This document shows positions 7,908 through 64,000 of a DNA stretch of 64,000 nt, piece by piece. Each line of letters starts with the position of its first letter. Within the stretch, counting starts at the first letter, position 1. The stretch comes from Ruminococcus flavefaciens. GTDB lineage: Bacteria > Bacteroidota > Bacteroidia > Bacteroidales > P3. The stretch covers positions 19,935 to 83,934 of the forward strand of contig JAMPAI010000008.1 of NCBI GenBank assembly GCA_023667315.1, read 5' to 3'. The notes beneath the pieces are model-generated. The model saw only the letters and a list, made by a program, of their open reading frames with translations, made no database searches and was not told where the DNA came from. The position numbers and the translations under genes are program-made.

Positions 7908-8029
7908 AAACGATTCCGGCGGCGAGCTGCTGCGTTAGAAGCCTTGGGCTCGCTTGGTCACGTACTTCAGTACGCTCCCGCGCGTTCCCAAGGCTTCCGC
8001 CTTGCATCTCATCCGCCGGAATCGTTTTT
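7906..8029 (+). repeat. Nested palindromic element, copy A
   Basis: A 124-base element built as a hairpin within a hairpin. The outer arms AAAAACGATTCCGGCGG (7906-7922) and CCGCCGGAATCGTTTTT (8013-8029) are perfect complements. GAAGCCTTGG and CCAAGGCTTC form a second stem, and CGTACT-TC-AGTACG forms the centre. The 42 bases at 7947-7988 are identical (reverse-complemented) to 40105-40146 in copy B. The element starts inside the frr stop codon. Confidence 0.85.
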
Positions 8030-8054
8030 ACGGGAGGCCGTCTGATTTGTTTTT

Positions 8055-8096
8055 AGACAAAAAAAGGGAGTTCATATGAACTCCCTTTTTTTGTCT
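8055..8096. terminator. Bidirectional terminator between frr side and histone-like gene
   Basis: A perfect 42-base palindrome with seven A's on the left of GGGAGTTCAT and seven T's on the right of ATGAACTCCC. It can terminate transcripts from either strand and serves the minus-strand Hc1-type gene just to the right. Confidence 0.9.
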
Positions 8097-8109
8097 ATGA
8101 AAGTAAAGA

Positions 8110-8286
8110 TTAGTTCTTGCTTTCTTCAATCGAAGCCTTGCGGAATTCCTTGAACAGTTTGGTCAGTTCCAAGGAAGCCTTACGGGCGCGGGCACCGGCG
8201 GCTTTGTTGCCCTTTTCGGCGTAAGCGTCGGCGTTGGTTTTGAAAGCTTCGAGTTGTTCGTTGATTTGGCTCATCAATTTGTTCAT
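8110..8286 (-). CDS. Histone H1-like Hc1-family protein
   Basis: A 58-residue, largely helical, lysine-rich protein (MNKLMSQINEQLEAFKTNAD, then AYAEKGNKAAGARARKAS, then LTKLFKEFRKAS), matching the short Hc1-type proteins common in Bacteroidota and named after chlamydial histone H1. A nucleoid role is presumed from the family. ATG 8286 is chosen over the TTG two codons upstream. It has its own promoter and terminator and so forms a single-gene unit. Confidence 0.8.
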   Translation of the reverse strand: MNKLMSQINEQLEAFKTNADAYAEKGNKAAGARARKASLELTKLFKEFRKASIEESKN

Positions 8287-52480: not shown

Positions 52481-53059
52481 ATGATTGCCATTCAGAACAC
52501 CTTGATTTCGGACGAGGTCTTTACCGAACACTTCTGCTGCAACCTGAACAAATGCAAGGGTTGCTGCTGCATAGAGGGGGATGCCGGGGCGCCGCTCGAG
52601 AAAGACGAGCACAGGCTCTTGGAAAGATACTATCCGGCCTACCGCGAGTATATGTGCGAGAAAGCGCGGGAGATCGTGGAAACGAAGGGCTTTTCGGAGG
52701 TCTATCCGCCCGACGGCAGCCTGGTGACGCCCATCATAAACGGCCGCGACTGCGTGTACCTTACCTACGGGGAGGGCGGCATCGCGTACTGCGCGGTGGA
52801 GAAGGCTTTCCGCGAGGGGAGGATTCCTTTCCGCAAGCCCATATCGTGCTATCTGTTCCCGATACGGGTGCAGCACTATCCTGAATACGATGCGGTGAAC
52901 TACTTTCACTGGAGCATCTGCCGCGACGCGGAGGTGGCCGGCCGCCGCAAGAAGATTCCCGTGTTCCGCTTCCTCAAGGACCCGCTCACCGAATATTACG
53001 GCGAGGAATGGTACCAAGAGGCCGAGGCCGTCTATAAAGGGGTCTTCGAAGGGAAGTAA
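52481..53059 (+). CDS. DUF3109-family cysteine-rich protein
   Basis: A 192-residue protein with the DUF3109 layout: CCNLNKCKGCCCIEGDAGAP near residue 20, then YCAVEKAF, PISCYLFPIRV and SICRDAE. The eight or so conserved cysteines suggest a metal or iron-sulfur cluster, similar to YkgJ-type clusters. No function is known. It follows the riboflavin kinase by 11 bases. Confidence 0.88.
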   Translation: MIAIQNTLISDEVFTEHFCCNLNKCKGCCCIEGDAGAPLEKDEHRLLERYYPAYREYMCEKAREIVETKGFSEVYPPDGSLVTPIINGRDCVYLTYGEGGIAYCAVEKAFREGRIPFRKPISCYLFPIRVQHYPEYDAVNYFHWSICRDAEVAGRRKKIPVFRFLKDPLTEYYGEEWYQEAEAVYKGVFEGK

Positions 53060-53321: not shown

Positions 53322-54497
53322 ATGAACAGAGTATTGACACATATAGATTGTTTTGCAGGACCTGGTGGAATTTGCACGGGGTTAGCCGCTGCGGGTTTCG
53401 AAACGAAGGTGGCTATAGAGCATATCAAGAGTTGTTGCGATACTTATTCCACAAATCACCCGACAGTCAAAGTGATACATTCAGATATAAGGAAGGTGAA
53501 AGCCAAAGACATTCTACCTTTCATTCCAAAGGAAGGTGTGGATTTGGTTACTTCTGGTATGCCGTGTGAAACCTTTTCAACGGCGGGAAACACTTCACGC
53601 TCATTCTATGATGATAGACAGTTTCTTTTTAGGGAGGGAATCAGGATAGCTAAAATTTCCAAAGCCAAGATGATTCTCTTTGAGAATGTTCCAGCCATAA
53701 CTTCAAAAACCATAAGCCGGGAAGATAAGACACTTATAGTGGATGTTCTTAAAAAGGAATTGGTTGAAGCAGGTTACTCCAATTTTATTGAGGTGGTTCT
53801 TGATGCTACTAAGTTTGGTGTACCCCAAAGGAGAAATAGGTTCTTTATATTGGCCTCTAAAAATTCCGCTTGGAAACTTGAGATTCCTCAGCCTACAACA
53901 GATAGACCAATGACGGTGTTTGAAGCTTTGTGCGACCTGCCCAATGCTGAACCTAATGCCAATAAGGATATTAAAAAGTATACAGGAACGTATTCGGCTT
54001 TTTCATCACTGATGAAGGATTTGGTGTTTTGGAAAAGGGAAGGTTTTAGTTCCGAATTAACCCTTCAAACATCAATGAATCACCGACCCAGTACAATCAA
54101 AAGGTTTTCTTTATTACAGGAGGGTGAAGGGTTGAGGGAACTTTTTGAAAGATATACGGGAAAAGAAAGGGAAGTCCTGCAGAAGGAAAAGGTTCTACCT
54201 AAAAAGATGTTCATTAAAAGGAACGTCAGGTTAAGGCTTGATGAGCCCAGTTCCACCGTTACCAGCCATTGTTTAGACGAATTTGTCCATCCCATTTATA
54301 ACAGAGCCTTGACGGTCAGGGAATGTGCCAGACTTCAATCTTTTCCAGATTCCTACTATTTTGCGGGGCCTTATTTGGTTCCCCATATTGACAGAACTGT
54401 TCAGGATAAGTATGAGCAGATAGGCGATGCCGTACCCCCTCTTTTGGCTTATGCCTGGGGTTGTACAATAACCAAAATTTTTGAAAACTATGACTGA
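53322..54497 (+). CDS. DNA (cytosine-5) methyltransferase
   Basis: A 391-residue C5-methyltransferase with all main motifs: I HIDCFAGPGGICTGL, IV GMPCETFS with the catalytic Cys82, VI FENVPAI, VIII QRRNRFFIL, IX LTVRECARLQSFP and X QIGDAVPP. The target-recognition domain lies between VIII and IX and is short. It should methylate the recognition site of the endonuclease encoded next. The gene is AT-rich against its surroundings, indicating transfer. The 3' end overlaps the endonuclease gene by 8 bases. Confidence 0.95.
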   Translation: MNRVLTHIDCFAGPGGICTGLAAAGFETKVAIEHIKSCCDTYSTNHPTVKVIHSDIRKVKAKDILPFIPKEGVDLVTSGMPCETFSTAGNTSRSFYDDRQFLFREGIRIAKISKAKMILFENVPAITSKTISREDKTLIVDVLKKELVEAGYSNFIEVVLDATKFGVPQRRNRFFILASKNSAWKLEIPQPTTDRPMTVFEALCDLPNAEPNANKDIKKYTGTYSAFSSLMKDLVFWKREGFSSELTLQTSMNHRPSTIKRFSLLQEGEGLRELFERYTGKEREVLQKEKVLPKKMFIKRNVRLRLDEPSSTVTSHCLDEFVHPIYNRALTVRECARLQSFPDSYYFAGPYLVPHIDRTVQDKYEQIGDAVPPLLAYAWGCTITKIFENYD

Positions 54498-55350
54498 CAA
54501 CATATTCCAGTATTGTGAAAAAGCCTATAATGACGCTTATGGTTTTGCTTATCAAGAATTTCTTCATGGAAAAAAACGAAAGCAGAAGATAGAAGAGGTT
54601 GAACGCTACGCCCAGAAGGCGGCTATTAGGGGGGCACTAAAGAATGGCGTGGCTCACTTTCCGTCAAGCGATGTAAGTGATATTTGGAAAAATGTTTACA
54701 AGGTTCATATTTACAGAAAATCCGGTCTGACGGTAGATGAAGATACAGTGGCTAAAGTGATTAGTGCTGAACAGAGTTGGCGGAAATCCAGTGGGCACGC
54801 TTTTGAGGAGTTGGTTAAGGAATTGGCAAATCTATCATTGTCTGGCACCAACGTAGAGGTTGTTTTGCAAAGGGATTTAAGTACGCTTTTAAAGATTGGT
54901 GAAATTGCAAATGAACCTAGAGATATAGCCTGGCTTGAAAAACAGATAGAGGCGGCTATTTTTGACCTTTATGCTATAGTTAAAGTGGAGAATAAAAAGT
55001 TTTGTTTCGGGTGCATACAAAGCAAAACAAGCATAAGGGATAGGGTCACCAGAGATAGGGAACCTTCTATTCATGCCATGCAAAGTTTCTTTTGGAGTGT
55101 ATGTATAGCTTTGGATGGTGATTTTTTGAAACTTCCTAAATTTATAGGCATGGTGAACGGAGGAACAGAGGAGTTTCCTGAAAATGGGTGGCACGGAATG
55201 TATGTTCTTTCAGATATAACCAGCAAAGATAGGCTTTATCGCACGGGTTTTGATTTGGATTTGTTTACTTCTCACGCTGTGGATGCTTCTGAATATTGGC
55301 TTACTCAAAGGCAATGGTTCAATAGGGAATGGAAAGCAAAAAAAGACTAG
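54490..55350 (+). CDS. Type II restriction endonuclease, probably CCGG-family (BsaWI-like)
   Basis: A 286-residue protein with no strong family signature at the N-terminus. SWRKSSGHAFEELVKEL (residues ~97-112) and Asp159, followed by the FGCIQSKTS strand with Lys179, make a PD-(D/E)XK active site. Directly after come IRDR (residues 182-185), resembling the R-x-(D)-R element by which NgoMIV, Bse634I and BsaWI read CCGG. I therefore infer a CCGG-containing target; the precise site is unknown. ATG 54490 overlaps the methyltransferase stop. Confidence 0.7.
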   Translation: MTDNIFQYCEKAYNDAYGFAYQEFLHGKKRKQKIEEVERYAQKAAIRGALKNGVAHFPSSDVSDIWKNVYKVHIYRKSGLTVDEDTVAKVISAEQSWRKSSGHAFEELVKELANLSLSGTNVEVVLQRDLSTLLKIGEIANEPRDIAWLEKQIEAAIFDLYAIVKVENKKFCFGCIQSKTSIRDRVTRDREPSIHAMQSFFWSVCIALDGDFLKLPKFIGMVNGGTEEFPENGWHGMYVLSDITSKDRLYRTGFDLDLFTSHAVDASEYWLTQRQWFNREWKAKKD

Positions 55351-55410
55351 AAAGGGCACGTATGGATGCTGAGAATATTCTTTAAAAGAAAAAGAGAGGT
55401 AAGGTGTATT

Positions 55411-55453
55411 TTTTTAATCAAAACGGCTCTAAATGAGCCGTTTTGATTAAAAA
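55411..55453. terminator. Bidirectional terminator after the second restriction-modification system
   Basis: A 19-base perfect inverted repeat (55411-55429 and 55435-55453) around the loop TAAAT. T5 on one side and A5 on the other let it serve the convergent genes on both sides. Confidence 0.88.
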
Positions 55454-55464
55454 TTTTCAGGCCA

Positions 55465-56289
55465 CTATTTCCCGATCCTGTCATACTCCTCGTCCGAAAC
55501 CGGTTCCAGCCATTCGTTGGAGGTCTTTTCTCCCGGAATCTCGAAGGCGAGGTGTGCGAACCAGCTGTCGGCGGCCGCCCCGTGCCAGTGCTTCACGTTG
55601 GCCGGAATGTGGATCACCGTGCCCGGCAGGATTTCCTGCGCCGGCTTGCCCGCTTCCTGATACCAGCCGCGGCCGGCCACGCCCACCAGCACCTGTCCGC
55701 CGCCCTTGACGGCGCGGTGGATGTGCCAATTGTTGCGGCAGCGTGGTTCGAAGGTTACGTTCGAGAACGCCACCTGATCGGTGGAGATGCGCGCCAGATA
55801 GCTGTTGCCGATAAAATACTTGGCGTAGGCCGTGTTGGGTTCGCCGATGGGAAAGATCATGCTGCGTTGAAAGGCGGCCTTGGCGTCCTCGCCCTTCAGG
55901 TCTTCCGCCCACACCTCCGTGGCCAGACGGAAAGCCGCCCAAGCCTTGGGCCAGCCGGCGTAGAAGGCAATGTGCGTGATGATTTCGGCAATCTCGGTGC
56001 GCGAGATGCCGTACTTCTTGGCCGTCTGCAGGTGGTGCACGAGCGAGGCATCGGTGATGCCCTGGCTGATGAGCGCGGTAACGGTGACGAGGCTGCGGTC
56101 GCGCAGGGAGAGCAGGTCGTTGCGGCTCCACACCTCGCCGAAGAGAACATCGTCGTTAAGGTGCGCGAACTCGGGGGCGAACTCGCCCAATTGCGCGCGT
56201 CCGGCGGTCTGAACAATTTTTTCCTGTGCCATGGCGTTAAGGTTTAAGAATGCGGTTATCGATAGGAGGCAAAAAAGGTATCGTTTCAT
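55465..56289 (-). CDS. Exported carboxymuconolactone decarboxylase-like / cupin fusion
   Basis: A 274-residue protein with an N-terminal signal peptide (ITAFLNLNAMAQ). Residues ~30-130 form an AhpD/CMD-like helical domain (SLVTVTALISQGITDASLVH, ISRTEIAEIITHIAFYAGWP) without the CxxC redox pair. Residues ~160-265 form a cupin with WHIHRAVKGGGQ and HIPANVKHWHG metal ligands. This two-domain protein occurs in many bacteria as a putative carboxymuconolactone decarboxylase, but the export signal is less usual. The start is ATG 56289. Confidence 0.85.
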   Translation of the reverse strand: MKRYLFCLLSITAFLNLNAMAQEKIVQTAGRAQLGEFAPEFAHLNDDVLFGEVWSRNDLLSLRDRSLVTVTALISQGITDASLVHHLQTAKKYGISRTEIAEIITHIAFYAGWPKAWAAFRLATEVWAEDLKGEDAKAAFQRSMIFPIGEPNTAYAKYFIGNSYLARISTDQVAFSNVTFEPRCRNNWHIHRAVKGGGQVLVGVAGRGWYQEAGKPAQEILPGTVIHIPANVKHWHGAAADSWFAHLAFEIPGEKTSNEWLEPVSDEEYDRIGK

Positions 56290-56352
56290 CGCTTTTCGTT
56301 TTTGATTTCGGATGCAAAGGTAACACCCCGCCCCAAGACCGTCCCTAAACGG

Positions 56353-56391
56353 ATTACGGATTGTGTTACCCAAATTACGGATTGTGCTACC
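56353..56391. repeat. Two tandem copies of an 18-base sequence
   Basis: ATTACGGATTGTGTTACC (56353-56370) and ATTACGGATTGTGCTACC (56374-56391) with a 21-base period, in the upstream region of the CMD-cupin gene. The remaining intergenic sequence 56392-56529 shows nothing recognisable. Confidence 0.6.
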
Positions 56392-56529
56392 GGGATTAAG
56401 GATACCTGCACTGTCTGTCCTCTCCCAGCAGTGTTGATTTCACGCTGCAAAAATAGAACGCCCCGGGCAGATGGATTTTGCTCAAAGGCTCAATTTATTT
56501 TGTTCGGAGGCTCAAAAGATGATGATACG

Positions 56530-56550
56530 AAAAACCCCGCGTTTGCGGGG
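56530..56550 (-). terminator. Terminator of lipoprotein gene 1
   Basis: On the minus strand CCCCGC, loop AAAC, GCGGGG, then TTTTT. Confidence 0.85.
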
Positions 56551-56558
56551 TATGTTTA

Positions 56559-56990
56559 TTAATACTGTTTTTGACGAACGGTCCAGCCATTTTGTACAAA
56601 CCACAAACTATCATTTACACTGGCTGTATTCGGTCTAAAATGAAAATCACCACGACCTGAGACTTTATCTGAAAGTTCTACTCTTCGTTGAAGTATTGTT
56701 TTTACTATGTTTATATCTTCTGTTGAGTACCCTGTATAATCATTATCTGATTCTACAACCATATATATATGCTTACATGCGGTATCATCGACATATTTTC
56801 GCACATTTTTGTCGCCAACAGAATCCACATTGTCTTGGTTAAAAAACAATTCTTTTTCATACGGTGCGCGGTATATGGATTTATCCTTCTCTTTTTCGCA
56901 CGCGGGCAACATCAATCCGGCGGTGCCCGCCAATGCCAATGCGAAGAAGGCATGCTTCGCCCAAATCATCAATAAGTTACGTTTTTCCAT
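56559..56990 (-). CDS. Small lipoprotein, paralog 1 of 4
   Basis: A 143-residue lipoprotein. The signal peptide is MEKRNLLMIWAKHAFFALAL with lipobox LPAC (Cys31). The mature part has YRAPYEKELFF, DDTACKHIYMVV and, near the end, NDSLWFVQNGWTV. The end motif (D-S-x-W-x-V-Q-N-G-W) is shared by all four copies in the window. No known family. Closest to paralog 2: the signal-peptide DNA is identical to 58537-58601. It faces the CMD-cupin side and reads away from the truncated DUF1016 gene. Confidence 0.8.
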   Translation of the reverse strand: MEKRNLLMIWAKHAFFALALAGTAGLMLPACEKEKDKSIYRAPYEKELFFNQDNVDSVGDKNVRKYVDDTACKHIYMVVESDNDYTGYSTEDINIVKTILQRRVELSDKVSGRGDFHFRPNTASVNDSLWFVQNGWTVRQKQY

Positions 56991-57092
56991 GGTAAAATCC
57001 TTTCTTTGGTTGAACCCGAATCCCGACCGCCCTGTGCGCCCAAAACCGAGTTCCCCACAAAATTAATACAAAATCTTGATTTTGGGAAACAA
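56991..57092 (-). repeat. Conserved leader of lipoprotein gene 1
   Basis: The core at 57013-57077 recurs upstream of all four lipoprotein genes. On the minus strand it carries TAATTTTG (57065-57058), a plausible -7 box. The core continues into the start of the divergent truncated DUF1016 frame. Confidence 0.75.
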
Positions 57093-58084
57093 CTTCATCA
57101 TCTTGGGAAACATCTAAGCTGGTCTCTTATATCTTCCCGCTTCGGCGGCAATTCACTATCTTTTATACCACATTAAGCAATGATTTGCATAATGAATTAG
57201 GCAACAGGATTGCGACATCGCCTACAACCATCAAGTATTCATGTTATTTTTACAGACTTTATAGTCAATGCTTTGCAATTCGTCCTCAAGTTGGGGACGA
57301 ATTAAGACAAGAGACTTGTCCTCAAGTTGGGGACGAATCTTCAAAACAGAAATATGATGATATTTTCTCTATACCCTGGGGTCATCATAAAATTTTGATA
57401 GATAAGTTTTCCAACAATCCAGAGAAAGCCATATTCTATGTTGGCCAAATAGTAAAAAACGGTTGGAGCCGTGCCATGTTGCTGAACTGTATCAACAGTG
57501 ATATGTTTGAGCGTCAAGGAAAGGCGTTGACTAATTTTAAGCGAACTTTACCCGCTCTAGACAGTGATTTGGCTCAAGAATTGACAAAAGACCCTTACAA
57601 TTTTGCTTTTACCGGCATAACGCAACCCTATAACGAGCGGATTCTTAAAGACGCATTACTCAATAATATAACTCTGTTTCTCACCGAGTTGGGCACCGGG
57701 TTTGCCTACGTTGGCAAGGAATATCGATTACAGGTTGGTGAAACGGAAAATTTCATCGATTTGCTTTTCTATAATCTCAATCTATCCTGTTATGTTGTAA
57801 TTGAGGTGAAAATCGGCAAGTTCTCGTTTTCCGACGTGGGACAGTTAGGGGGGTACGTTGTGGCCTGCAACCATCTGTTGCGTAAGGAAAGTCGCGACAA
57901 TCCGACCATAGGGCTGCTTATATGCAAGGAAAAAGACCGTATTCAGGCGCAATATGCCCTGGAATCGAGCAGTCAGCCTATCGGCATTTCCGAATATGAC
58001 CTCGAAAAATTCTATCCTGAAAAGATAGAGGGTACGATGCCCACCATCGAGGAAATTGAAGCCAGATTGGGAAATCGTAGTTAA
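57093..58084 (+). pseudogene. 5'-truncated DUF1016 (PD-(D/E)XK, YhcG-type) nuclease
   Basis: The frame is open from inside the lipoprotein leader, has no ATG before mid-gene, and could start only at TTG 57185 (299 residues). Homology-like sequence starts at about TLSNDLHNELGNR, so roughly 60-90 N-terminal residues of a full DUF1016 protein are gone. The C-terminal nuclease is intact: FIDLLFYNLNLSCYVVIEVK gives the Asp and ExK residues, then GQLGGYVVACNHLL and PIGISEYDL. A 21-base direct repeat (57282-57302, 57318-57338) duplicates PQVGDE. Possibly inactive, or expressed as a short form. Confidence 0.7.
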
Positions 58085-58103
58085 CACGAAGCCGAGCGGA
58101 GAA

Positions 58104-58130
58104 AAAAAACGCCCCGCGGGAGGCGGGGCG
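58104..58130 (-). terminator. Terminator of lipoprotein gene 2
   Basis: On the minus strand CGCCCCG, loop CCTCCCG, CGGGGCG, then a T run (from A's at 58102-58109). An almost identical hairpin ends paralog 3. Confidence 0.85.
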
Positions 58131-58168
58131 TGAGGGCAAACGGGAGGCGTGTCCGATTTGTCGCCGTC

Positions 58169-58603
58169 CTATCGTTGTCTGATAAGTGTCCAACCATTTT
58201 GCACATACCATGCACTGTCGGCGGGGTATATTGCATCGTTACCTATGTATATCGCGCCGCGGCCGGTAACCTTTTGCGATACATTTAATGCCGGTTCCAA
58301 TATTATTGTGCGATATTTATTTATAAAGTCAGCACCACGTGCAAAATTACAATCTGATTTTGTTGTTAAATAAATCTTTTTGCATGCAGTATCATCTGCA
58401 TATTGTTGCACAATCGGCGTGGCTATGGAATCCGCTTCGCCGGGTTTAAAAAACAATTCCTTCTCATACGGGGCACGATATATTGGTTTCTTTTCCACTG
58501 GTTCCTTTTCACATGATGGTAACATTACGCCGGCGGTGCCCGCCAATGCCAATGCGAAGAAGGCATGCTTCGCCCAAATCATCAATAAGTTACGTTTTTC
58601 CAT
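58169..58603 (-). CDS. Small lipoprotein, paralog 2 of 4
   Basis: A 144-residue lipoprotein: signal peptide as in paralog 1, lipobox LPSC, then CEKEPVEKKPIYRAPYEKEL, DDTACKKIYLTTKSD and the C-terminal DSAWYVQNGWTLI. The start at ATG 58603 gives the same N-terminus as the other copies. The two copies 1 and 2 share IYRAPYEKELFF and DDTAC, whereas 3 and 4 share a different middle. Unknown function. Confidence 0.8.
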   Translation of the reverse strand: MEKRNLLMIWAKHAFFALALAGTAGVMLPSCEKEPVEKKPIYRAPYEKELFFKPGEADSIATPIVQQYADDTACKKIYLTTKSDCNFARGADFINKYRTIILEPALNVSQKVTGRGAIYIGNDAIYPADSAWYVQNGWTLIRQR

Positions 58604-58755
58604 AGTAAAATCCTTTCTTTGGTTGAACCCGAATCCCGACCGCCCCATGCGCCCAAAACCAGGTTATCCACAAAATTAATACAAATCACTCGATTTCAAA
58701 AACTAAAAAGATTGAATTTGGGAAACAACTTCATGCTTCTGCGGCATGGACAAGC
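58604..58755 (-). repeat. Conserved leader of lipoprotein gene 2
   Basis: Core at 58626-58686, with TAATTTTG (58678-58671) and TTTG (58700-58697) spaced by 18 bases on the minus strand. Similarity to leader 3 extends to a TGCGGCATGGACA sequence (58741-58753), farther than leader 1. Confidence 0.75.
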
Positions 58756-58817
58756 CGGAGATGATTGCGAAATCACTGATTTCGTAATTTGGGGATGCGT
58801 TTTTATGTTTTTTTCAC

Positions 58818-58880
58818 TACATTTGCAGTTCCGAAACCGCCATTTCGGAACTCGCTGTTTCGGAACCCGTTGTTTCGGAA
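58818..58880 (+). promoter_or_regulatory. -7 box and TTTCGGAA operator-like array before the DUF234 ATPase
   Basis: TACATTTG (58818-58825) fits the -7 consensus. Downstream, TTTCGGAA occurs at 58843, 58858 and 58873, exactly 15 bases apart, and its complement TTCCGAAA at 58829. The inverted pair 58829-58850 could form a hairpin in the mRNA leader. The array lies between the promoter and the ATG at 58900. Confidence 0.7.
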
Positions 58881-58899
58881 TGATTGACAAAACACACCT

Positions 58900-60219
58900 A
58901 TGGAGTTTTTTGACAGAAAACAGGAAATAAGTTTGTTGCGGGAAATCCGCAAGCAGGCGCAAAAGCAGGCCCAGTTCACCGTCCTTACGGGGCGGCGGCG
59001 TATCGGCAAGACCTCGCTTGTCTGGAAAGCCTACGAAGACATGCCCTTCCTCTATTTCTTCGTGAGCCGGAAGACCGAAAGCGAACTTTGCGAAACCTAT
59101 CAGGCGGAAATCTCCGGGAAGTTAGGGGTACCCACGATGGGGAAAGCCCAAAACTTCGCCGAAGTCTTCGAATTCCTGCTGAAATGGTCCGTTTCCCATC
59201 CGCTTACGCTTTTTATCGATGAGTTCCAGGAGTTTTACCGTGTGAATAAATCCGTGTACGGCGATATGCAGCGCCTTTGGGACCTGTATCACCCCCGGGC
59301 GCATGTCAACCTGATTGTGTGCGGTTCGGTGCATTCCATGATGAGTCGGATCTTTATGGACGGAAAAGAGCCCCTGTATAACCGGCAGACCCGTTTTATG
59401 AGCATACGCCCCTTTACGCCCTCTGTCTTGAAAGAGATTCTTAAAAGCCACAACGGAACCTATACGCCCGAAGACCTGCTGGCTCTCTACTCGTTTACGG
59501 GCGGGGTGGCCAAGTATGTGCAGCTGTTGATGGATGCCGGTGCCACAACCAAGGCTAAGATGATCCGTCAGATTCTCCGTCCCGATTCAGTTTTTACAGG
59601 AGAGGGCAAGGCTATGCTGGTGGAAGAGTTCGGGCGGGAATACGGCATTTATTTCTCGATACTCTCCGCCATCGCGCAAGGCAAGAACAGTCGTGCGGAA
59701 ATAGAAAACGCCGTGGGGCGGGAAACCGGCGGCTACCTGACCCGGCTGGAAACCGAATACGAACTGATAGGGAAGAAACAGCCCTTGTTCGAGAAGAATT
59801 CGAATAAGAACATGCGCTACATGCTGAAAGACAACTTCCTTACGTTTTGGTTCCGCTTCATCTACAAATACGGCTATATGCTGGAGATAGAGGCCTTCGA
59901 TGCCTTGAAGACCTTGGTGAACCGCGACTACGAGACTTTCAGCGGCCTGATGCTGGAAAGGTATTTCAAGCAGGTGCTGGCGGAAAGCGGAAAATACACA
60001 CGCATAGGCGGATGGTGGAACCGCAAGGGAGAGAACGAAATCGACCTGATTGCCGAAAACGAACTGACCTGGGAGGCGTGTTTTTTCGAAATCAAGCGGA
60101 ACGCCGCCCGCTACAACCCCGCTGTATTAGATGAAAAGGTGGCGAATTTCCTGCAGGCCACCGGACAGTTCAAGGGCTACACCGTTTCCCGCAAGGTCCT
60201 TTCCATGAAAGATATGTAG
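58900..60219 (+). CDS. ATP-binding protein with DUF234 C-terminal domain
   Basis: A 439-residue protein of the archaeal-type ATPase family. P-loop LTGRRRIGKTSLV (~28-40), Walker B TLFIDEFQEFY, a sensor region NLIVCGSVHSMM, then a winged-helix part, and a C-terminal DUF234 region with NEIDLIAENE and EACFFEIKRN, resembling a PD-(D/E)XK nuclease. Family members are widespread in gut Bacteroidota as accessory genes; their role is unknown. Surrounded by lipoprotein paralogs 2 and 3. Confidence 0.85.
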   Translation: MEFFDRKQEISLLREIRKQAQKQAQFTVLTGRRRIGKTSLVWKAYEDMPFLYFFVSRKTESELCETYQAEISGKLGVPTMGKAQNFAEVFEFLLKWSVSHPLTLFIDEFQEFYRVNKSVYGDMQRLWDLYHPRAHVNLIVCGSVHSMMSRIFMDGKEPLYNRQTRFMSIRPFTPSVLKEILKSHNGTYTPEDLLALYSFTGGVAKYVQLLMDAGATTKAKMIRQILRPDSVFTGEGKAMLVEEFGREYGIYFSILSAIAQGKNSRAEIENAVGRETGGYLTRLETEYELIGKKQPLFEKNSNKNMRYMLKDNFLTFWFRFIYKYGYMLEIEAFDALKTLVNRDYETFSGLMLERYFKQVLAESGKYTRIGGWWNRKGENEIDLIAENELTWEACFFEIKRNAARYNPAVLDEKVANFLQATGQFKGYTVSRKVLSMKDM

Positions 60220-60234
60220 CCGAAACTTCGCTTC

Positions 60235-60257
60235 CTCCCCAAGGACACGGGGAGTTT
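60235..60257 (+). terminator. Terminator after the DUF234 ATPase
   Basis: CTCCCC (60235-60240) pairs with GGGGAG (60249-60254), followed by four T's. Confidence 0.6.
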
Positions 60258-60290
60258 TGGAGGGTGCCGATGTGTAATCTGGAAAACTAA

Positions 60291-60314
60291 AAACGCCCCG
60301 CGGGAGGCGGGGCG
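60291..60314 (-). terminator. Terminator of lipoprotein gene 3
   Basis: On the minus strand CGCCCCG and CGGGGCG flank CCTCCCG and are followed by TTTTTAG; essentially the same hairpin as at 58110-58130. Confidence 0.85.
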
Positions 60315-60348
60315 TGAGGGAAAAAGAAGGCACCGCCTGGGCGGTGTT

Positions 60349-60789
60349 TTATCTCCGCCTCGGCCTGATTTGCCAGCCGTTTTGCACGAACCATAAACTG
60401 TCCTCGGGCGATGCGGCACAGGCCGCAAATATAAACGTCCCGGCGCCTGTCGCCTTGGTGGTATAGTTCAAACGGTCAGACAAAATTCCGCGTAACATAG
60501 AAATATTTGAAGTATTAAAGCCATCGTAGTTATTGTTTTGGTTTGTTGAATCCAAGAAATAAATTATTGTTGTGATACGTGGGTCATTCGCATATTTCAT
60601 AACATTATCATATTGAATGGAATCCAAATCAATTCTAGCACCAAACGGCAAAACCTTTACCGGGTCAATGGGTTGGGAATACGGGTCTTCAGTCTTTTTT
60701 TCGCAGCCCGCCATCAATCCCGTGCCCGCCAATGCCAGTGCGAAGACGGCACGCTTTACCCAAATCGTCAATAAGTTACGTTTCTCCAT
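60349..60789 (-). CDS. Small lipoprotein, paralog 3 of 4
   Basis: A 146-residue lipoprotein with lipobox MAGC (Cys29), then KKTEDPYSQPIDPVKVLPFG, RITTIIYFLDSTNQNNN and the shared DSLWFVQNGW end. About nine in ten residues equal paralog 4, and 149 bases (60608-60756) are identical to 62130-62278, so the copies are recent duplicates or kept alike by gene conversion. Unknown function. Confidence 0.8.
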   Translation of the reverse strand: MEKRNLLTIWVKRAVFALALAGTGLMAGCEKKTEDPYSQPIDPVKVLPFGARIDLDSIQYDNVMKYANDPRITTIIYFLDSTNQNNNYDGFNTSNISMLRGILSDRLNYTTKATGAGTFIFAACAASPEDSLWFVQNGWQIRPRRR

Positions 60790-60998
60790 AGTAAAATTCT
60801 TTTTTTCCTTTTCAAGGCACCTTTTCTCGCCATGGCCATCTGAAAACAAGTTTTCGATGGCTCATTTGGCTTAACGAAAAGGTTGGTTTTCAACCCGAAT
60901 CCCGACCGCCCCGTGCGCCCAAAAACGAGTTCCTCACAAAATTAATACAAAATCTTAACATTGAGAAAACACCTTCACGTTTTTGCGGCATGGACATG
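60790..60998 (-). repeat. Conserved leader of lipoprotein gene 3
   Basis: Core at 60892-60956, with TAATTTTG at 60944-60937 (minus strand). About 90 bases of unshared sequence are inserted between the core and the start codon compared with copies 1 and 2. The far end shares TGCGGCATGGACA with leader 2. The rest of this 311-base intergenic region holds the HigBA promoter. Confidence 0.75.
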
Positions 60999-61034
60999 GG
61001 ACGAGAACTTCCATGGATTTCCCGAAGCTTAAAA

Positions 61035-61075
61035 ATTATCAAATTTGCTAATCTGATAATTTACCCCTACATTTG
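61035..61075 (+). promoter_or_regulatory. Promoter and palindromic operator of higBA
   Basis: TTTG (61044-61047), 20 bases, then TACATTTG (61068-61075), a full consensus promoter. ATTATCA (61035-61041) and TGATAAT (61054-61060) form an inverted repeat that straddles the -33 box, well placed for repression by HigA. Confidence 0.75.
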
Positions 61076-61100
61076 CTCTGTTGTTAACGATTTGGGGTTT

Positions 61101-61418
61101 ATGATTGTTGTTTTCGAAGAGGAATACCTGCGCCAATTGTACGAAGAGGGCAGATGCAAGGACAAAAAGCACCGCTATCAGCCCGATATCGTGCGTCGCT
61201 ATCAAAAGGCGATACGTTTTTTGATAACGGCCTCTTCCATCGAAGCCTTGTGGCCCATCCGCTCACTCAACTACGAAGTGTTGGCGGGCAACAAGGCCGG
61301 CAGGTCTTCCATTCGTGTCAACGACCGGTATCGGGTGGAATTTACGGTTACCCAAACCACGGAAGAACCTATACTGACCGTTTGCAACATAATGGAATTG
61401 TCGAACCACTATAAATAG
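61101..61418 (+). CDS. higB: HigB-type toxin (RelE/ParE superfamily)
   Basis: A 105-residue protein with the HigB layout: an alpha-helical start (FEEEYLRQLYEEG), QPDIVRRYQKAIRFL, LWPIRSLNYEVLAGNKAGRS and SIRVNDRYRVEFTVTQ as the central beta sheet. Members are ribosome-dependent mRNA interferases. ATG 61101 is preferred to the longer frame because the promoter lies upstream of it and the fold starts there. It precedes its antitoxin by 8 bases, the usual order for hig loci. Confidence 0.9.
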   Translation: MIVVFEEEYLRQLYEEGRCKDKKHRYQPDIVRRYQKAIRFLITASSIEALWPIRSLNYEVLAGNKAGRSSIRVNDRYRVEFTVTQTTEEPILTVCNIMELSNHYK

Positions 61419-61426
61419 GAAAAAAG

Positions 61427-61771
61427 ATGTTCACAATGAAGGGTGTTAAACCGAATATGATAGCGAACAACCTTACTCCCAGCCGGCCTGTCCATCCGGG
61501 AGAGATGATCAAGGATGAACTTGAATACCGAGGCATGTCGCAGAAGGAGCTTGCCGCTCAAATCGGTATTCCGGCCTCCGTTCTCAATGCCGTACTCAAC
61601 GGAAAGAGGGCTGTGAGCACCGAATACGCGCTCTTGTTCGAAGCCGCCTTGGGCATCGAGGCGGATATCTGGTTGAAGTTGCAGTCAGACTACAATAAGC
61701 AGATGGCACAGGCCAATCCCTCGTTCATGAAACGAATCAACAGTATCCGCAAAGTTGCCGCCGTTTTTTAA
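61427..61771 (+). CDS. higA: HigA-type antitoxin (XRE helix-turn-helix)
   Basis: A 114-residue protein with RPVHPGEMIKDELEYRGMSQ, then the helix-turn-helix KELAAQIGIPASVLNAVLNG and a C-terminal dimerisation helix. It should bind HigB and repress the palindrome at 61035-61060. The start could also be the later ATGs within the first 11 codons; the first follows AGGAAAAAAG. Located between lipoprotein paralogs 3 and 4. Confidence 0.9.
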   Translation: MFTMKGVKPNMIANNLTPSRPVHPGEMIKDELEYRGMSQKELAAQIGIPASVLNAVLNGKRAVSTEYALLFEAALGIEADIWLKLQSDYNKQMAQANPSFMKRINSIRKVAAVF

Positions 61772-61811
61772 TCTTTCCATTCTGATAAAAACAACCGGCG
61801 GTCAGTCTTGA

Positions 61812-61837
61812 TAAACCCCTCGAATTCGAAGGGTTTA
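61812..61837. other. Near-palindrome downstream of higA
   Basis: TAAACCC and GGGTTTA flank CTCGAATTCGAA, giving a 26-base near-perfect palindrome that contains a GAATTC site. No T run follows, so terminator function is doubtful. Confidence 0.5.
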
Positions 61838-61876
61838 AAATCGGGATGAATGCTCCGCCCGGGTGGCGTTTTATCT

Positions 61877-62311
61877 CTACCACGTTCTGATTTTCCAGCC
61901 GTTTTGCACGAACCACAGACTGTCCTCGGGCGATGCGGCACCGGGTCTGAATATAAACGTTCCAGCACCCGTTGCCTTGGTCGTATAGTTCAACCGGTCA
62001 GACAAAGTTCCGCGTAATATAGAAATATTTGATGTTGCAAATCCAGTGAAATTATTGTTTTGGTTTGTTGAATCCAAGAAATAAATTATTGTTGTGATGC
62101 GCGGGTCATTCGCATATTTCATAACGTTTTCATATTGAATGGAATCCAAATCAATTCTAGCACCAAACGGCAAAACCTTTACCGGGTCAATGGGTTGGGA
62201 ATACGGGTCTTCAGTCTTTTTTTCGCAGCCCGCCATCAATCCCGTGCCCGCCAATGCCAGTGCGAAGACGGCACGCTTCGCCCAAATCATCAATCCATTA
62301 CGTTTTTTCAT
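61877..62311 (-). CDS. Small lipoprotein, paralog 4 of 4
   Basis: A 144-residue lipoprotein nearly identical to paralog 3 (lipobox MAGC, PIDPVKVLPFGARIDLDSI, DSLWFVQNGWKI). The N-terminus is MKKRNGLMIWAKRAVF and the last residues differ. The short hairpin near 61855-61870 could end its transcript. It is the last copy, next to the AAA_14 ATPase on the same strand. Confidence 0.8.
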   Translation of the reverse strand: MKKRNGLMIWAKRAVFALALAGTGLMAGCEKKTEDPYSQPIDPVKVLPFGARIDLDSIQYENVMKYANDPRITTIIYFLDSTNQNNNFTGFATSNISILRGTLSDRLNYTTKATGAGTFIFRPGAASPEDSLWFVQNGWKIRTW

Positions 62312-62485
62312 TATCGTTGTCTTTGTTGGTTTTCAACCGACCTTTTTCGCACCTCGGCATAGCCCGAACAAGTTCGGTCTCTGCTCTCGGCTGCAGAAAA
62401 ACGTTTGTTTTCAACCCGAATTCCGACCGCCCCGTGCGATAAAAACCGAGTTCTTCATAAAATTAATACAAAATCTTGGTTTTAG
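62312..62485 (-). repeat. Conserved leader of lipoprotein gene 4
   Basis: Core at 62413-62477, with the -7-like box changed to TAATTTTA. About 95 bases of sequence not found in the other copies lie between the core and the gene, including a CGAACAAGTTCG palindrome. Confidence 0.7.
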
Positions 62486-62547
62486 GAAATGTTCTTTGCT
62501 TGTTATAGTCATCTTGTCCTATATGCAGGACGGAATTTATTATTTTA

Positions 62548-62565
62548 TGTCTTATCGACAAGACA
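62548..62565 (-). terminator. Possible terminator after the AAA_14 ATPase
   Basis: On the minus strand TGTCTT and AAGACA flank GTCGAT and are followed by an A/T-rich stretch. The T run is interrupted. Confidence 0.4.
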
Positions 62566-62570
62566 ATGTG

Positions 62571-63911
62571 CTATTCCCTCGCCTGCTCCACCCATTCCAT
62601 CAACCTGTCCAGCCAGGCCGCCAAGGGCGCTGGAGCGCTCAGCAGGCCGCCGTTGTATTGCAGGTTCAGCATCGAGAAACGGATGCGGCAGGCGGGGTTG
62701 TACTTTTGAGTATAGACCGACAGGCTGTTGCCGTTTATGTTGCCCTCGGCCTTCACCTCCACGGGAATGATGTCCGTGTTCCATTGCAACACAAACTCCA
62801 CTTCGGCCGTGGCTTTCGAACTCCAGTAGCGCGGCATCAGCCCGTCGGTGAGCGGCAGAAGAGACTGCAAGACCGCATTCTCGGCCATCGCCCCCTTGAA
62901 TTCGGTATAGTTGGCCACCGGGTCGCTCACAATGGAGGCCGGAACGTTGGCCAGACGCCGCAATAGGCCGCAATCGCAGGCATACACCTTGAACGCGTCC
63001 GGTTCCGTATAGGCCGAAAGCGGCATCCCCGGCTTGGAGATATTGTGGACACGGTGAATCATGCCGGCTTCCTCGAGCCACATCAGCGCGTCTTCGTAAT
63101 CCTTGGAACGCGCCCCGGTCTTGATTACCTTATAGATGAACTTGCGGTTTTCCTTGGCCAACTGCGAGGGCAGCGAATGCCACACCGCATGGATGCGCGG
63201 AATCTCCCCCGCACCGGCATACTTGGAGAAATCCAGCTCGTAGAGGTCCAGGATGTTCTGCAAGGCATGTTCCACGGCCGCCACGCCCTTGTTCTCGAGC
63301 AAGGCCTTCACGGCTTCCGGCATGCCGCCGCACACCTGATACCGCCTGTATTCGGTGCGGAGCTTGTTCAGGATGATTTCCGGAAGGTGCCGTATTTCGG
63401 TCAAGGCGTCCACATAGTCGAACACCGAGGGGTCGGCAATCCTGAGAAACTCCCTGAACGAGACCGGATACATCCGCAAGATGTCCACCTTGCCCACGGG
63501 AACGGCCATCCTGCGCCGTCTCACCGCCACACCCAGCAGCGAACCGGCCGCGATGATGTGGTATTGGGGCGCATCCTCGCAAAAGTATTTCAGGCTGTTG
63601 AAGGCTTCCTCACATTCCTGAATCTCGTCGAAGATAATCAGGGTCTTGCCGGCCACGATAGGCACCTCGCTATATACGGACAACTCTTTGAGCAGTCGTG
63701 CTGGGTCTTTGGTAAGCTGAAACACCGACCGCAGTTCCGGCTGTCGGTCGAAGTCGAACTTCACGCAGTATTCGAAGCACTCCCTGCCGAAGGTCTCCAT
63801 GACCCAGGTCTTCCCGATCTGACGGGCGCCCCGGAGCAGGACGGGCTTCCTGTCCGGCCTGTCTTTCCAACGCTTCAGCGTGTCGATAATGTCTCTCCTG
63901 ATTTCCACCAT
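62571..63911 (-). CDS. ATP-binding protein, AAA_14 with DUF4143
   Basis: A 446-residue protein. The AAA_14 domain has Walker A LLRGARQIGKTWV (~25-37), Walker B TLIIFDEIQEC and the family segment DILRMYPVSFREFLRI. The C-terminal DUF4143 domain spans ~200-446 with EAGMIHRVHNIS, AMAENAVLQSLL and EVEFVLQWN plus PVEVKAE, a PD-(D/E)XK-like core. These proteins are common accessory ATPases in Bacteroidota with no known function. Confidence 0.9.
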   Translation of the reverse strand: MVEIRRDIIDTLKRWKDRPDRKPVLLRGARQIGKTWVMETFGRECFEYCVKFDFDRQPELRSVFQLTKDPARLLKELSVYSEVPIVAGKTLIIFDEIQECEEAFNSLKYFCEDAPQYHIIAAGSLLGVAVRRRRMAVPVGKVDILRMYPVSFREFLRIADPSVFDYVDALTEIRHLPEIILNKLRTEYRRYQVCGGMPEAVKALLENKGVAAVEHALQNILDLYELDFSKYAGAGEIPRIHAVWHSLPSQLAKENRKFIYKVIKTGARSKDYEDALMWLEEAGMIHRVHNISKPGMPLSAYTEPDAFKVYACDCGLLRRLANVPASIVSDPVANYTEFKGAMAENAVLQSLLPLTDGLMPRYWSSKATAEVEFVLQWNTDIIPVEVKAEGNINGNSLSVYTQKYNPACRIRFSMLNLQYNGGLLSAPAPLAAWLDRLMEWVEQARE

Positions 63912-63925
63912 AGCTCATTGCATTC

Positions 63926-63941
63926 AAGCCAATCTTGGCTT
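63926..63941. promoter_or_regulatory. Perfect palindrome before the AAA_14 ATPase
   Basis: AAGCCAATCTTGGCTT is a 16-base palindrome (7-base arms around TC) 15 bases upstream of the start codon, in operator or leader position. No clear promoter boxes are visible out to base 64000. Confidence 0.45.
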
Positions 63942-64000
63942 GGCTCTGCCCGCTAACCTGTCTTTCCCTAAAAAAAGTTGACACTATACGGGGATAAAAC

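What the first reader, a model, noticed from the sequence alone, without database searches (positions are those of the whole stretch)
56559..63911. Array of four paralogous lipoprotein units punctuating toxin, nuclease and ATPase genes
Seen directly: four copies of one lipoprotein gene (56559, 58169, 60349, 61877), all on the minus strand, each with a shared ~65-base leader core and, for copies 2 and 3, the same terminator hairpin. Between them sit single accessory genes: truncated DUF1016 nuclease, DUF234 ATPase, HigBA, AAA_14 ATPase. Inference: the repeated unit (leader + lipoprotein + terminator) provides homology by which cassettes are gained, lost or broken, so this may be an undescribed recombination-built accessory array. 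The lipoproteins have no family I know and may be functional partners or just scaffolding.
Basis: partly seen in the sequence, partly recalled or inferred. Interest (0 to 1): 0.82.

Follow-up and report, generated by a model that had tools for sequence, protein, structure and literature searches.

The report
Lipoprotein repeats bordering swapped defence genes
In a gut-type bacterium, several copies of one unnamed surface lipoprotein gene lie between single genes that look like anti-virus or toxin-antitoxin genes, and comparison with a close relative suggests that recombination between the copies changes which of those genes are present.

Summary
Confirmed: four minus-strand lipoprotein paralogues, shared leader, shared terminator for copies 2 and 3. 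A fifth copy sits at the end of another contig of the same genome; synteny in a close relative (G008 = L032) suggests it closes the array. The family has no convincing match in Pfam, NCBIfam, PHROGs or PDB sequences.

The recombination reading is partly supported. G008's first lipoprotein is a chimera: window copy 2 in the leader (first 15 informative sites), window copy 1 towards the 3' end; the DUF1016 gene and one lipoprotein are absent there. Some paralogue blocks are more alike than orthologues. A second locus, in another genus, shows a cargo swap beside a lipoprotein.

Against a dedicated cassette system: the leader was found only in this array and G008's; about 25 of 39 family loci show no such cargo neighbour; relatives of the DUF4143 gene occur in genomes without the lipoprotein.

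Family-wide, AAA_14 ATPases are enriched beside it: 13 of 78 immediate neighbours versus at most 2 of 223 distal genes.

Best reading: an accessory-gene hotspot in which tandem lipoprotein paralogues, resembling Staphylococcus lpl or Streptococcus tipC, supply recombination homology.

The parts
56559..56990 (-). lipoprotein copy 1 (own hairpin at 56534-56551)
58169..58603 (-). lipoprotein copy 2
60349..60789 (-). lipoprotein copy 3
61877..62311 (-). lipoprotein copy 4; mature N/middle part 93% identical (nt) to copy 3
56989..57077 (-). leader repeat of copy 1
   Evidence: family D3
58602..58690 (-). leader repeat of copy 2; nearly the same sequence upstream of the G008 chimeric copy
60868..60956 (-). 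leader repeat of copy 3; the longer leader is 96% identical over 164 nt to that of copy 5 on contig C22
62389..62477 (-). leader repeat of copy 4
58105..58140 (-). terminator hairpin of copy 2
60289..60324 (-). terminator hairpin of copy 3 (97% to that of copy 2)
58693..58762 (+). right flank of copy 2: resembles the start of the GNAT gene that follows copy 5
   Evidence: 1 of 2000 shuffles as good; copy 3 flank weaker (38 of 2000); copy 1 flank none (1266 of 2000)
57185..58084 (+). N-terminally truncated DUF1016/YhcG PD-(D/E)XK gene (PADLOC PDC-S02 models); absent from this site in G008
58900..60219 (+). ATPase_2-DUF234 gene (PADLOC PDC-S27); present in G008
60990..61418 (+). HigB-like toxin ORF (true start possibly 61101, by eye)
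   Evidence: present in G008
61427..61771 (+). HigA-like HTH_3 antitoxin
   Evidence: present in G008
62571..63911 (-). AAA_14-DUF4143 ATPase (PADLOC PDC-S01); not at this site in G008
62322..62405 (+). 84-bp dispersed repeat inside the leader of copy 4
   Evidence: 10 places in the genome, this one included

Best explanation
This is a hotspot for single accessory genes (defence-candidate ATPases and nuclease, a toxin-antitoxin pair, a restriction-modification pair just upstream) in which a tandem family of exported lipoproteins has duplicated and recombined. The paralogues share a 5' block (leader plus signal-peptide coding) and, for some pairs, 3' blocks around a variable middle. Homologous recombination between copies produces chimeric lipoproteins and, because accessory genes have come to lie between the copies, the same exchange removes a lipoprotein-plus-cargo segment. 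The mirror-image event, a single crossover with incoming DNA carrying a copy and its neighbour, would insert one. Shown: chimerism, paralogue blocks closer than orthologues, presence/absence of cargo. Inferred: that the crossovers cause the cargo change, and the route of gain. The lipoprotein itself is most likely a diversifying surface or periplasmic protein, perhaps immunity- or receptor-shielding-like (inference by analogy with tipC, low confidence), and not a scaffold evolved for recombination.
For: G008 lacks the DUF1016 gene and one lipoprotein between copies 1 and 2, and its remaining lipoprotein matches copy 2 in the leader (99%, versus 79% to copy 1) and copy 1 in the C-terminal coding block and beyond (100% and 100%, versus 50% and 33% to copy 2); change-point 0 of 20000 shuffles, PHI 0 of 2000. 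Paralogues closer than orthologues in several blocks: copies 3/4 mature middle 93% versus 80% and 77% to the G008 copy; copies 3/5 leader 94% versus 64%; copies 1/2 signal region 94% versus 85% and 82% to G008. Resemblance to the GNAT gene start beside copy 2. At this site the R-M pair 53322-55350 is present only in G000; an aldo-keto reductase, a flavodoxin-like lipoprotein gene and an AraC-type gene only in G008; copy 4-DUF4143-copy 5 only in G000 (names of the G008 genes by eye). Cargo swap at a second locus: MATE-[ATPase_2]-lipoprotein-EamA in G061 versus MATE-[HTH-AbiEii]-lipoprotein-EamA in G062 (MATE by eye), flanks 81-88% nt; a related HTH-AbiEii pair (77-82% aa) lies beside a different lipoprotein locus in G061. 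AAA_14 in 13 of 78 immediate neighbours versus at most 2 of 223 distal genes, Fisher P = 7e-7. Precedents for paralogue recombination: PMC9484751 (passages).
Against: Only two genomes hold this locus, each a single MAG of its species; no strain series. Deletion and insertion cannot be told apart. The chimera is not a clean two-part one: after the first 15 copy-2 sites, copy-1 matches are mixed with short copy-2-like runs and sites matching neither. The G000 array is split over two contig ends at a repeat. DUF4143 genes cluster with each other too: of the 19 DUF4143 genes of G000 away from lipoproteins, 5 lie next to, or one small gene away from, another such ATPase (by eye; the simple gene caller missed at least one of the 19), so ordinary hotspot co-residence could explain the enrichment with no role for the lipoprotein. 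About 25 of 39 lipoprotein loci show no such cargo neighbour.
Confidence: 0.62

Rival explanations
1. Plain hotspot co-residence: lipoproteins and cargo independently settle in permissive intergenic sites; recombination among paralogues diversifies the lipoproteins but plays no part in moving cargo.
For: DUF4143 genes are scattered and some cluster with each other; relatives of the window DUF4143 occur in genomes without the lipoprotein; about 25 of 39 loci have no ATPase, AbiEii or RhuM neighbour.
Against: The G008 chimera spans the DUF1016 gap; related HTH-AbiEii pairs sit beside two different lipoprotein loci.
Confidence: 0.3
2. Functional pairs: each lipoprotein is a partner (exported sensor or immunity part) of the accessory gene on its 3' side, above all DUF4143-type ATPases.
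For: Enrichment; by locus outside the G000/G008 array 10 ATPases of this type lie on the 3' side of the lipoprotein and 1 on the 5' side; a DUF4143 protein 76% identical over the 283 aa available lies beside a lipoprotein pair in another family, G054.
Against: Cargo types are unrelated (ATPase, HigBA, AbiEii, RhuM-Fic, DUF1016); orientation varies; many lipoproteins lack cargo; 19 of 22 DUF4143 genes in G000 are away from any lipoprotein of the family; sidedness is weak against an assumed 65% expectation (P = 0.06).
Confidence: 0.12
3. The lipoprotein gene with its flanks is itself a mobile or dispersing repeat (REP-like or circular cassette).
For: In G190 the copies are dispersed between unrelated genes, with a conserved 5' stretch and short palindromic repeats at the 3' end.
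Against: By eye no sharp shared boundaries or target duplications in the alignment, and no recombinase recognised beside it; in the window genome the leader is confined to the array; no match in plasmid, phage or viral collections.
Confidence: 0.12
4. Assembly artefact: repeats have misjoined the cargo genes.
For: MAG, 4.98% contamination estimate; contigs C87 and C22 end at or near repeat units.
Against: DUF234-lipoprotein-HigBA order is repeated in an independent assembly, G008.
Confidence: 0.04

Closest known systems
Staphylococcus aureus lpl tandem lipoprotein cluster of the vSa-alpha island (PMC4470592; start of abstract and passages)
   Same: Tandem lipoprotein paralogues, conserved block plus variable regions, proposed shuffling and duplication, restriction-modification genes close by.
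   Different: In the passages seen, lpl genes form a cluster beside hsdM/hsdS and are not described as interrupted one by one by single genes; different organism; our family has no convincing Pfam match.
esaG and tipC tandem immunity genes (PMC9484751; abstract and passages)
   Same: Recombination between tandem paralogues; tipC has a predicted lipoprotein signal, conserved 5' and 3' ends and a variable centre, much as here.
   Different: Those are immunity genes for known secreted toxins; no toxin partner is known here and foreign genes lie between copies.
HGT hotspots without mobile elements (PMC5635113; part of abstract and passages)
   Same: Rapid turnover of accessory genes between conserved flanks, homologous recombination as a proposed motor.
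   Different: There the homology is in flanking core genes; here it is in repeated accessory lipoprotein genes inside the hotspot.
PADLOC putative defence candidates PDC-S01, S02, S27, S23 (models; PMC12988326, passages, for S01 and S27)
   Same: Cargo genes match these models (S23 for the RhuM-Fic gene of L035).
   Different: [quoted passage not shown] the models that matched here are for single cargo proteins, and the lipoproteins were not scanned against PADLOC.

Membership tests
lpl/esaG/tipC-type recombining tandem paralogues | Several paralogues in one orientation at one locus | tested here: met
   4 of 4 on minus strand
lpl/esaG/tipC-type recombining tandem paralogues | Conserved end block(s), a variable middle, mosaic copies | tested here: met
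   signal region 74-94% across all pairs of 7 copies, middle down to 44%; the 3' block is shared only by some pairs; change-point and PHI tests
lpl/esaG/tipC-type recombining tandem paralogues | Copies adjacent, no foreign genes between | tested here: not met
   cargo in 3 of 3 intervals between the four window copies
lpl/esaG/tipC-type recombining tandem paralogues | Cognate toxin known (esaG, tipC) | not testable with these tools
   no candidate toxin partner identified
HGT hotspot without mobile elements | Conserved flanks, different gene content between genomes | tested here: met
   (two genomes only)
HGT hotspot without mobile elements | No integrase or transposase | tested here: inconclusive
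   none among the 10 proteins of 54481-63911 scanned by Pfam; contig C87 ends with the window
PADLOC PDC-S01/S02/S27 | HMM match | tested here: met
   E 2.7e-161 (62571, S01), 4.5e-119 (57185, S02), 2.5e-47 (58900, S27)
PADLOC PDC-S01/S02/S27 | Anti-phage activity | not testable with these tools
   needs phage assays
Integron cassette array | Integrase and attC sites (recalled) | not tested
   no search for an integrase or attC sites was run
Acquired interbacterial defence (AID) immunity clusters of Bacteroidales | Recombinase-associated orphan immunity genes (recalled) | not tested
   no immunity family appeared in the Pfam or NCBIfam scans of the lipoproteins

The most novel reading that the evidence does not exclude
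The lipoprotein family is a portable homologous landing pad: where a copy sits, its 3' side tends to collect single-gene defence or toxin-antitoxin cargo, and recombination between copies at different loci trades that cargo, so that one small exported protein family organises part of the accessory immune repertoire of these gut-type Bacteroidales.
Probability: 0.22. Interest if true: 0.78.

Novelty: new variant of a known kind. Interest (0 to 1): 0.5.

Why it matters
PDC-type single genes are reported as very common but mostly unvalidated (PMC12988326, passages: PDC-S01 the fourth most common defence across all prokaryotes), and in my view how such solitary genes are gained and lost is largely open. 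A repeated, recombining lipoprotein next to them gives a concrete, testable route and a sequence handle for finding more cargo. It also defines a lipoprotein family without a convincing match in Pfam, NCBIfam, PHROGs or PDB sequences, found in Bacteroidales and in records titled Alphaproteobacteria or proteobacteria.

Tried and rejected
Structure prediction of the lipoprotein was not available, so no fold comparison was made. Sequence search against PDB gave nothing better than E = 0.14; PHROGs three families with one member each of 36, best 0.005; Pfam and NCBIfam only weak, scattered matches, the best E = 0.00047. Copy 1 was not found in plasmids or phages, nor the family in viral contigs by one pattern (44 pattern matches, 0 confirmed), so a phage or plasmid origin is not supported. 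Leader and hairpin as genome-wide dispersed elements: rejected for this genome (clear leader matches only at the five copies; exact hairpin pattern at 2 places). Leader as a known RNA family: no match at or above gathering score in 56000-64000; one sub-threshold RsmY hit at 60241-60350, 25 bits against 57, judged chance. HigB of L035 as a homologue of the window HigB: no. The long weak tail (64 of 190 genomes at E <= 1e-3) I read as mostly signal-peptide matches; at E <= 1e-8 I count 17 of 190. Literature: DUF4143 occurs in 1 paper of the held library by exact search; searches gave nothing that I used, 57 a listing only; others gave the cited papers. I found no paper on this lipoprotein family or array in the listings of 57, 79, 80 and 81, which is not proof of absence.

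Rows dropped before counts (counts): of 92 immediate-neighbour genes 78 were scanned (14 from records titled Alphaproteobacteria or proteobacteria left out); of 294 distal genes 223 were scanned (56 left out for the same reason, 15 long proteins to keep within the residue cap). Loci L037, L053 and L084 were left out as orthologous or duplicate contigs; L166 had no called lipoprotein gene; L052 and L054 were not used. The 39 loci count the two contigs of the G000 array (window, L047) and G008 separately. The gene caller was simple and missed, for example, the HTH/Gp49 pair of L035. The family lists show only the first 25 families, so one distal AAA_14 or DUF4143 hit in each batch cannot be excluded and was assumed in the tests. 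The figure of about 25 of 39 loci without cargo counts as cargo only AAA_14/ATPase_2 genes, AbiEii and RhuM (present in 14 loci); HTH, WYL or methylase-like neighbours (e.g. L083, L087, L159) are not counted.
Full report
Observation. The four copies, their strand, leader repeat and, for copies 2 and 3, the hairpin are as described. The genes between and after them are, by Pfam, a DUF1016 gene lacking about the first half of its N domain, an ATPase_2-DUF234 gene, a HigB/HTH_3 pair and an AAA_14-DUF4143 gene. The genome (G000, 2.93 Mb MAG in 88 contigs) holds seven family members: the four here, one at the end of contig C22 and two on C77. The window ends where contig C87 ends.

The fifth copy. 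In the close relative G008 (locus L032, record JAMPIH010000001.1, titled Bacteroides sp.), the stretch beyond HigBA continues, after about 1.1 kb of its own, into sequence that in G000 lies at the C22 end beside the fifth lipoprotein (91-92% identity). So C87 and C22 probably meet at this array, and the order in G000 would be: cupin - copy 1 - DUF1016 - copy 2 - DUF234 - copy 3 - HigBA - copy 4 - DUF4143 - (gap) - copy 5 - GNAT (cupin and GNAT named by eye). The gap is inference.

Variation at the locus. G008 has, in the same frame of flanking genes: no R-M pair (the methyltransferase and BsaWI-type enzyme genes at 53322-55350 are missing from the site), an aldo-keto reductase and a flavodoxin-like lipoprotein gene instead, one lipoprotein where G000 has copy 1-DUF1016-copy 2, then DUF234 - copy 3 - HigBA, then an AraC-type regulator, and no copy 4, DUF4143 or copy 5 (G008-only genes named by eye). 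The GNAT gene is found in 2 of 13 genus genomes, G000 and G008, the left-flank gene at 52481 in 11 of 13; I fetched the site in eight of the others but did not analyse it.

Recombination. I aligned the five G000 copies and two G008 copies. G008's first copy has 99% identity to copy 2 in the leader (79% to copy 1) but 100% to copy 1 over a 98-nt block near the 3' end of the gene and over 48 aligned bases beyond (50% and 33% to copy 2). Of 188 sites that separate copies 1 and 2, the first 15 all match copy 2; later sites mostly match copy 1, with some short copy-2-like runs and some sites matching neither (138 match copy 1, 34 match copy 2 in all; change-point 0 of 20000 shuffles). A PHI test on 249 informative sites gave 0 of 2000 permutations as low as observed. 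Paralogues are more alike than orthologues in several blocks (3/4 mature middle 93% versus 80% and 77%; 3/5 leader 94% versus 64%; 1/2 signal region 94% versus 85% and 82%), which points to duplication or conversion after the split from G008; in other blocks, such as the 3' part of copies 1 and 3, the G008 copy is as close or closer. The flank beyond the leader of copy 2 resembles the beginning of the GNAT gene that follows copy 5 (1 of 2000 shuffles as good; copy 3 weaker, 38 of 2000; copy 1 none, 1266 of 2000), a possible fossil of an ancestral lipoprotein-GNAT junction that was duplicated before cargo arrived.

The family elsewhere. Among 61 genomes (own included) 9 have a match at E <= 0.01; among 190 family-level genomes 64 match at E <= 1e-3, of which I count 17 at E <= 1e-8, the rest being, as I read them, mainly signal peptide; among 393 genomes of the order 7 match at E <= 1e-7, own genome included. 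The genome-contig scan gave 15 loci, seven of them from records titled Alphaproteobacteria, proteobacteria or Candidatus Enterousia. There the copies are 1-4 in plain tandem and in 7 of 7 are followed by an ORF of 404-538 aa that looks exported and Cys-rich (by eye). In G190, another genus, the tool reports 8 matches dispersed between other genes, mostly housekeeping by eye but with, for example, a WYL-domain gene beside one; two of the matches lie on near-identical contigs, so at least 7 are distinct.

Neighbours. In 39 loci (records titled Alphaproteobacteria or proteobacteria left out) AAA_14 is found in 13 of 78 immediate neighbours, DUF4143 in 9, ATPase_2 in 4, AbiEii in 2 and DUF234 in 2. 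In 223 genes at rank 3-7 of the same loci neither AAA_14 nor DUF4143 reaches two members in either batch, so at most 2 of 223; Fisher P = 7e-7 and 1.3e-4. Twelve of the 13 AAA_14 neighbours are named and come from nine genomes (G000, G028, G054, G061, G105, G120, G230, G526, G534); the thirteenth is probably L032:8383, from G008. These tests treat genes as independent, which loci of one genome are not quite. Outside the G000/G008 array, 10 of 11 such ATPases lie on the 3' side of the lipoprotein (P = 0.012 against even odds, 0.06 against an assumed 65%). In G054 (another family) the DUF4143 protein beside a lipoprotein pair is 76% identical to the window's over the 283 aa available. At a second locus the cargo is exchanged: G061 has an ATPase_2 gene, G062 an HTH-AbiEii pair, between the same MATE-like and EamA genes and beside the same lipoprotein (64% aa); a related HTH-AbiEii pair lies beside a different lipoprotein in G061, and in G030 that site has kept the HTH gene but lacks AbiEii. 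The rival of plain co-residence stays serious: of the 19 DUF4143 genes of G000 away from lipoproteins, 5 sit next to, or one small gene away from, another such ATPase (by eye).

Mechanism. Shown: a chimeric copy, local similarity of paralogues, cargo presence/absence between two genomes, cargo exchange at a second locus. Inferred: that unequal exchange between copies removes the cargo lying between them, and that a single crossover with incoming DNA would add it. Not shown: direction, rate, RecA dependence, any function of the lipoprotein, any defence activity of the cargo.

Comparison with the known. The paralogue behaviour is that of lpl, esaG and tipC clusters (PMC9484751 and PMC4470592, passages); the turnover is that of hotspots without recognisable mobile elements (PMC5635113, passages); the cargo falls in PADLOC candidate families (PMC12988326, passages). 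What differs is a lipoprotein family without a convincing database match and single-gene cargo placed between the paralogues. I therefore call it a new variant of a known kind.

Noticed in passing
L083, L085-L089 (G190), e.g. L088 about 8000-8200: Upstream of 6 of the 7 G190 lipoprotein copies aligned (the seventh is cut by the end of the fetched stretch) lies, by eye, a short ORF ending in a run of about 8-11 G whose length differs between copies, then a strong hairpin with a T-run before the lipoprotein (folded for 2 copies, z -8.1 and -4.7): possibly a phase-variable leader peptide with a terminator.
   Followed up: partly
window 62322-62405; L032 7134-7215, 6273-6307, 6351-6387: An 84-bp dispersed repeat found at 10 places in the genome (this one included); in G008 a related copy lies inside the higB reading frame without breaking the frame and two partial copies lie beyond HigBA.
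   Followed up: partly
window 53322-55350: A type II methyltransferase and a BsaWI-type restriction gene present in G000 and absent from the same site in G008.
   Followed up: partly
L048 (G000 contig C77: 57001-77000): Two diverged lipoproteins of the family, each with an AAA_14-DUF4143 gene on the 3' side, and an HTH-HipA_C pair and a HATPase_c_4 gene close by.
   Followed up: yes
L038, L039, L041-L043, L045, L046: Lipoproteins of the family, mostly in tandem, in records titled Alphaproteobacteria, proteobacteria or Candidatus Enterousia, in recurring gene contexts that suggest they truly belong there; a possible cross-phylum distribution. Taxonomy taken from record titles only.
   Followed up: partly
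L091 versus L053: At the same site G061 has HTH-AbiEii beside a broken lipoprotein gene, whereas G030 keeps the HTH gene but lacks AbiEii.
   Followed up: yes
G000, loci L170-L185: 22 DUF4143 matches in a 2.9-Mb genome; of the 19 away from lipoproteins many stand alone between other genes and a few lie in pairs (by eye).
   Followed up: partly
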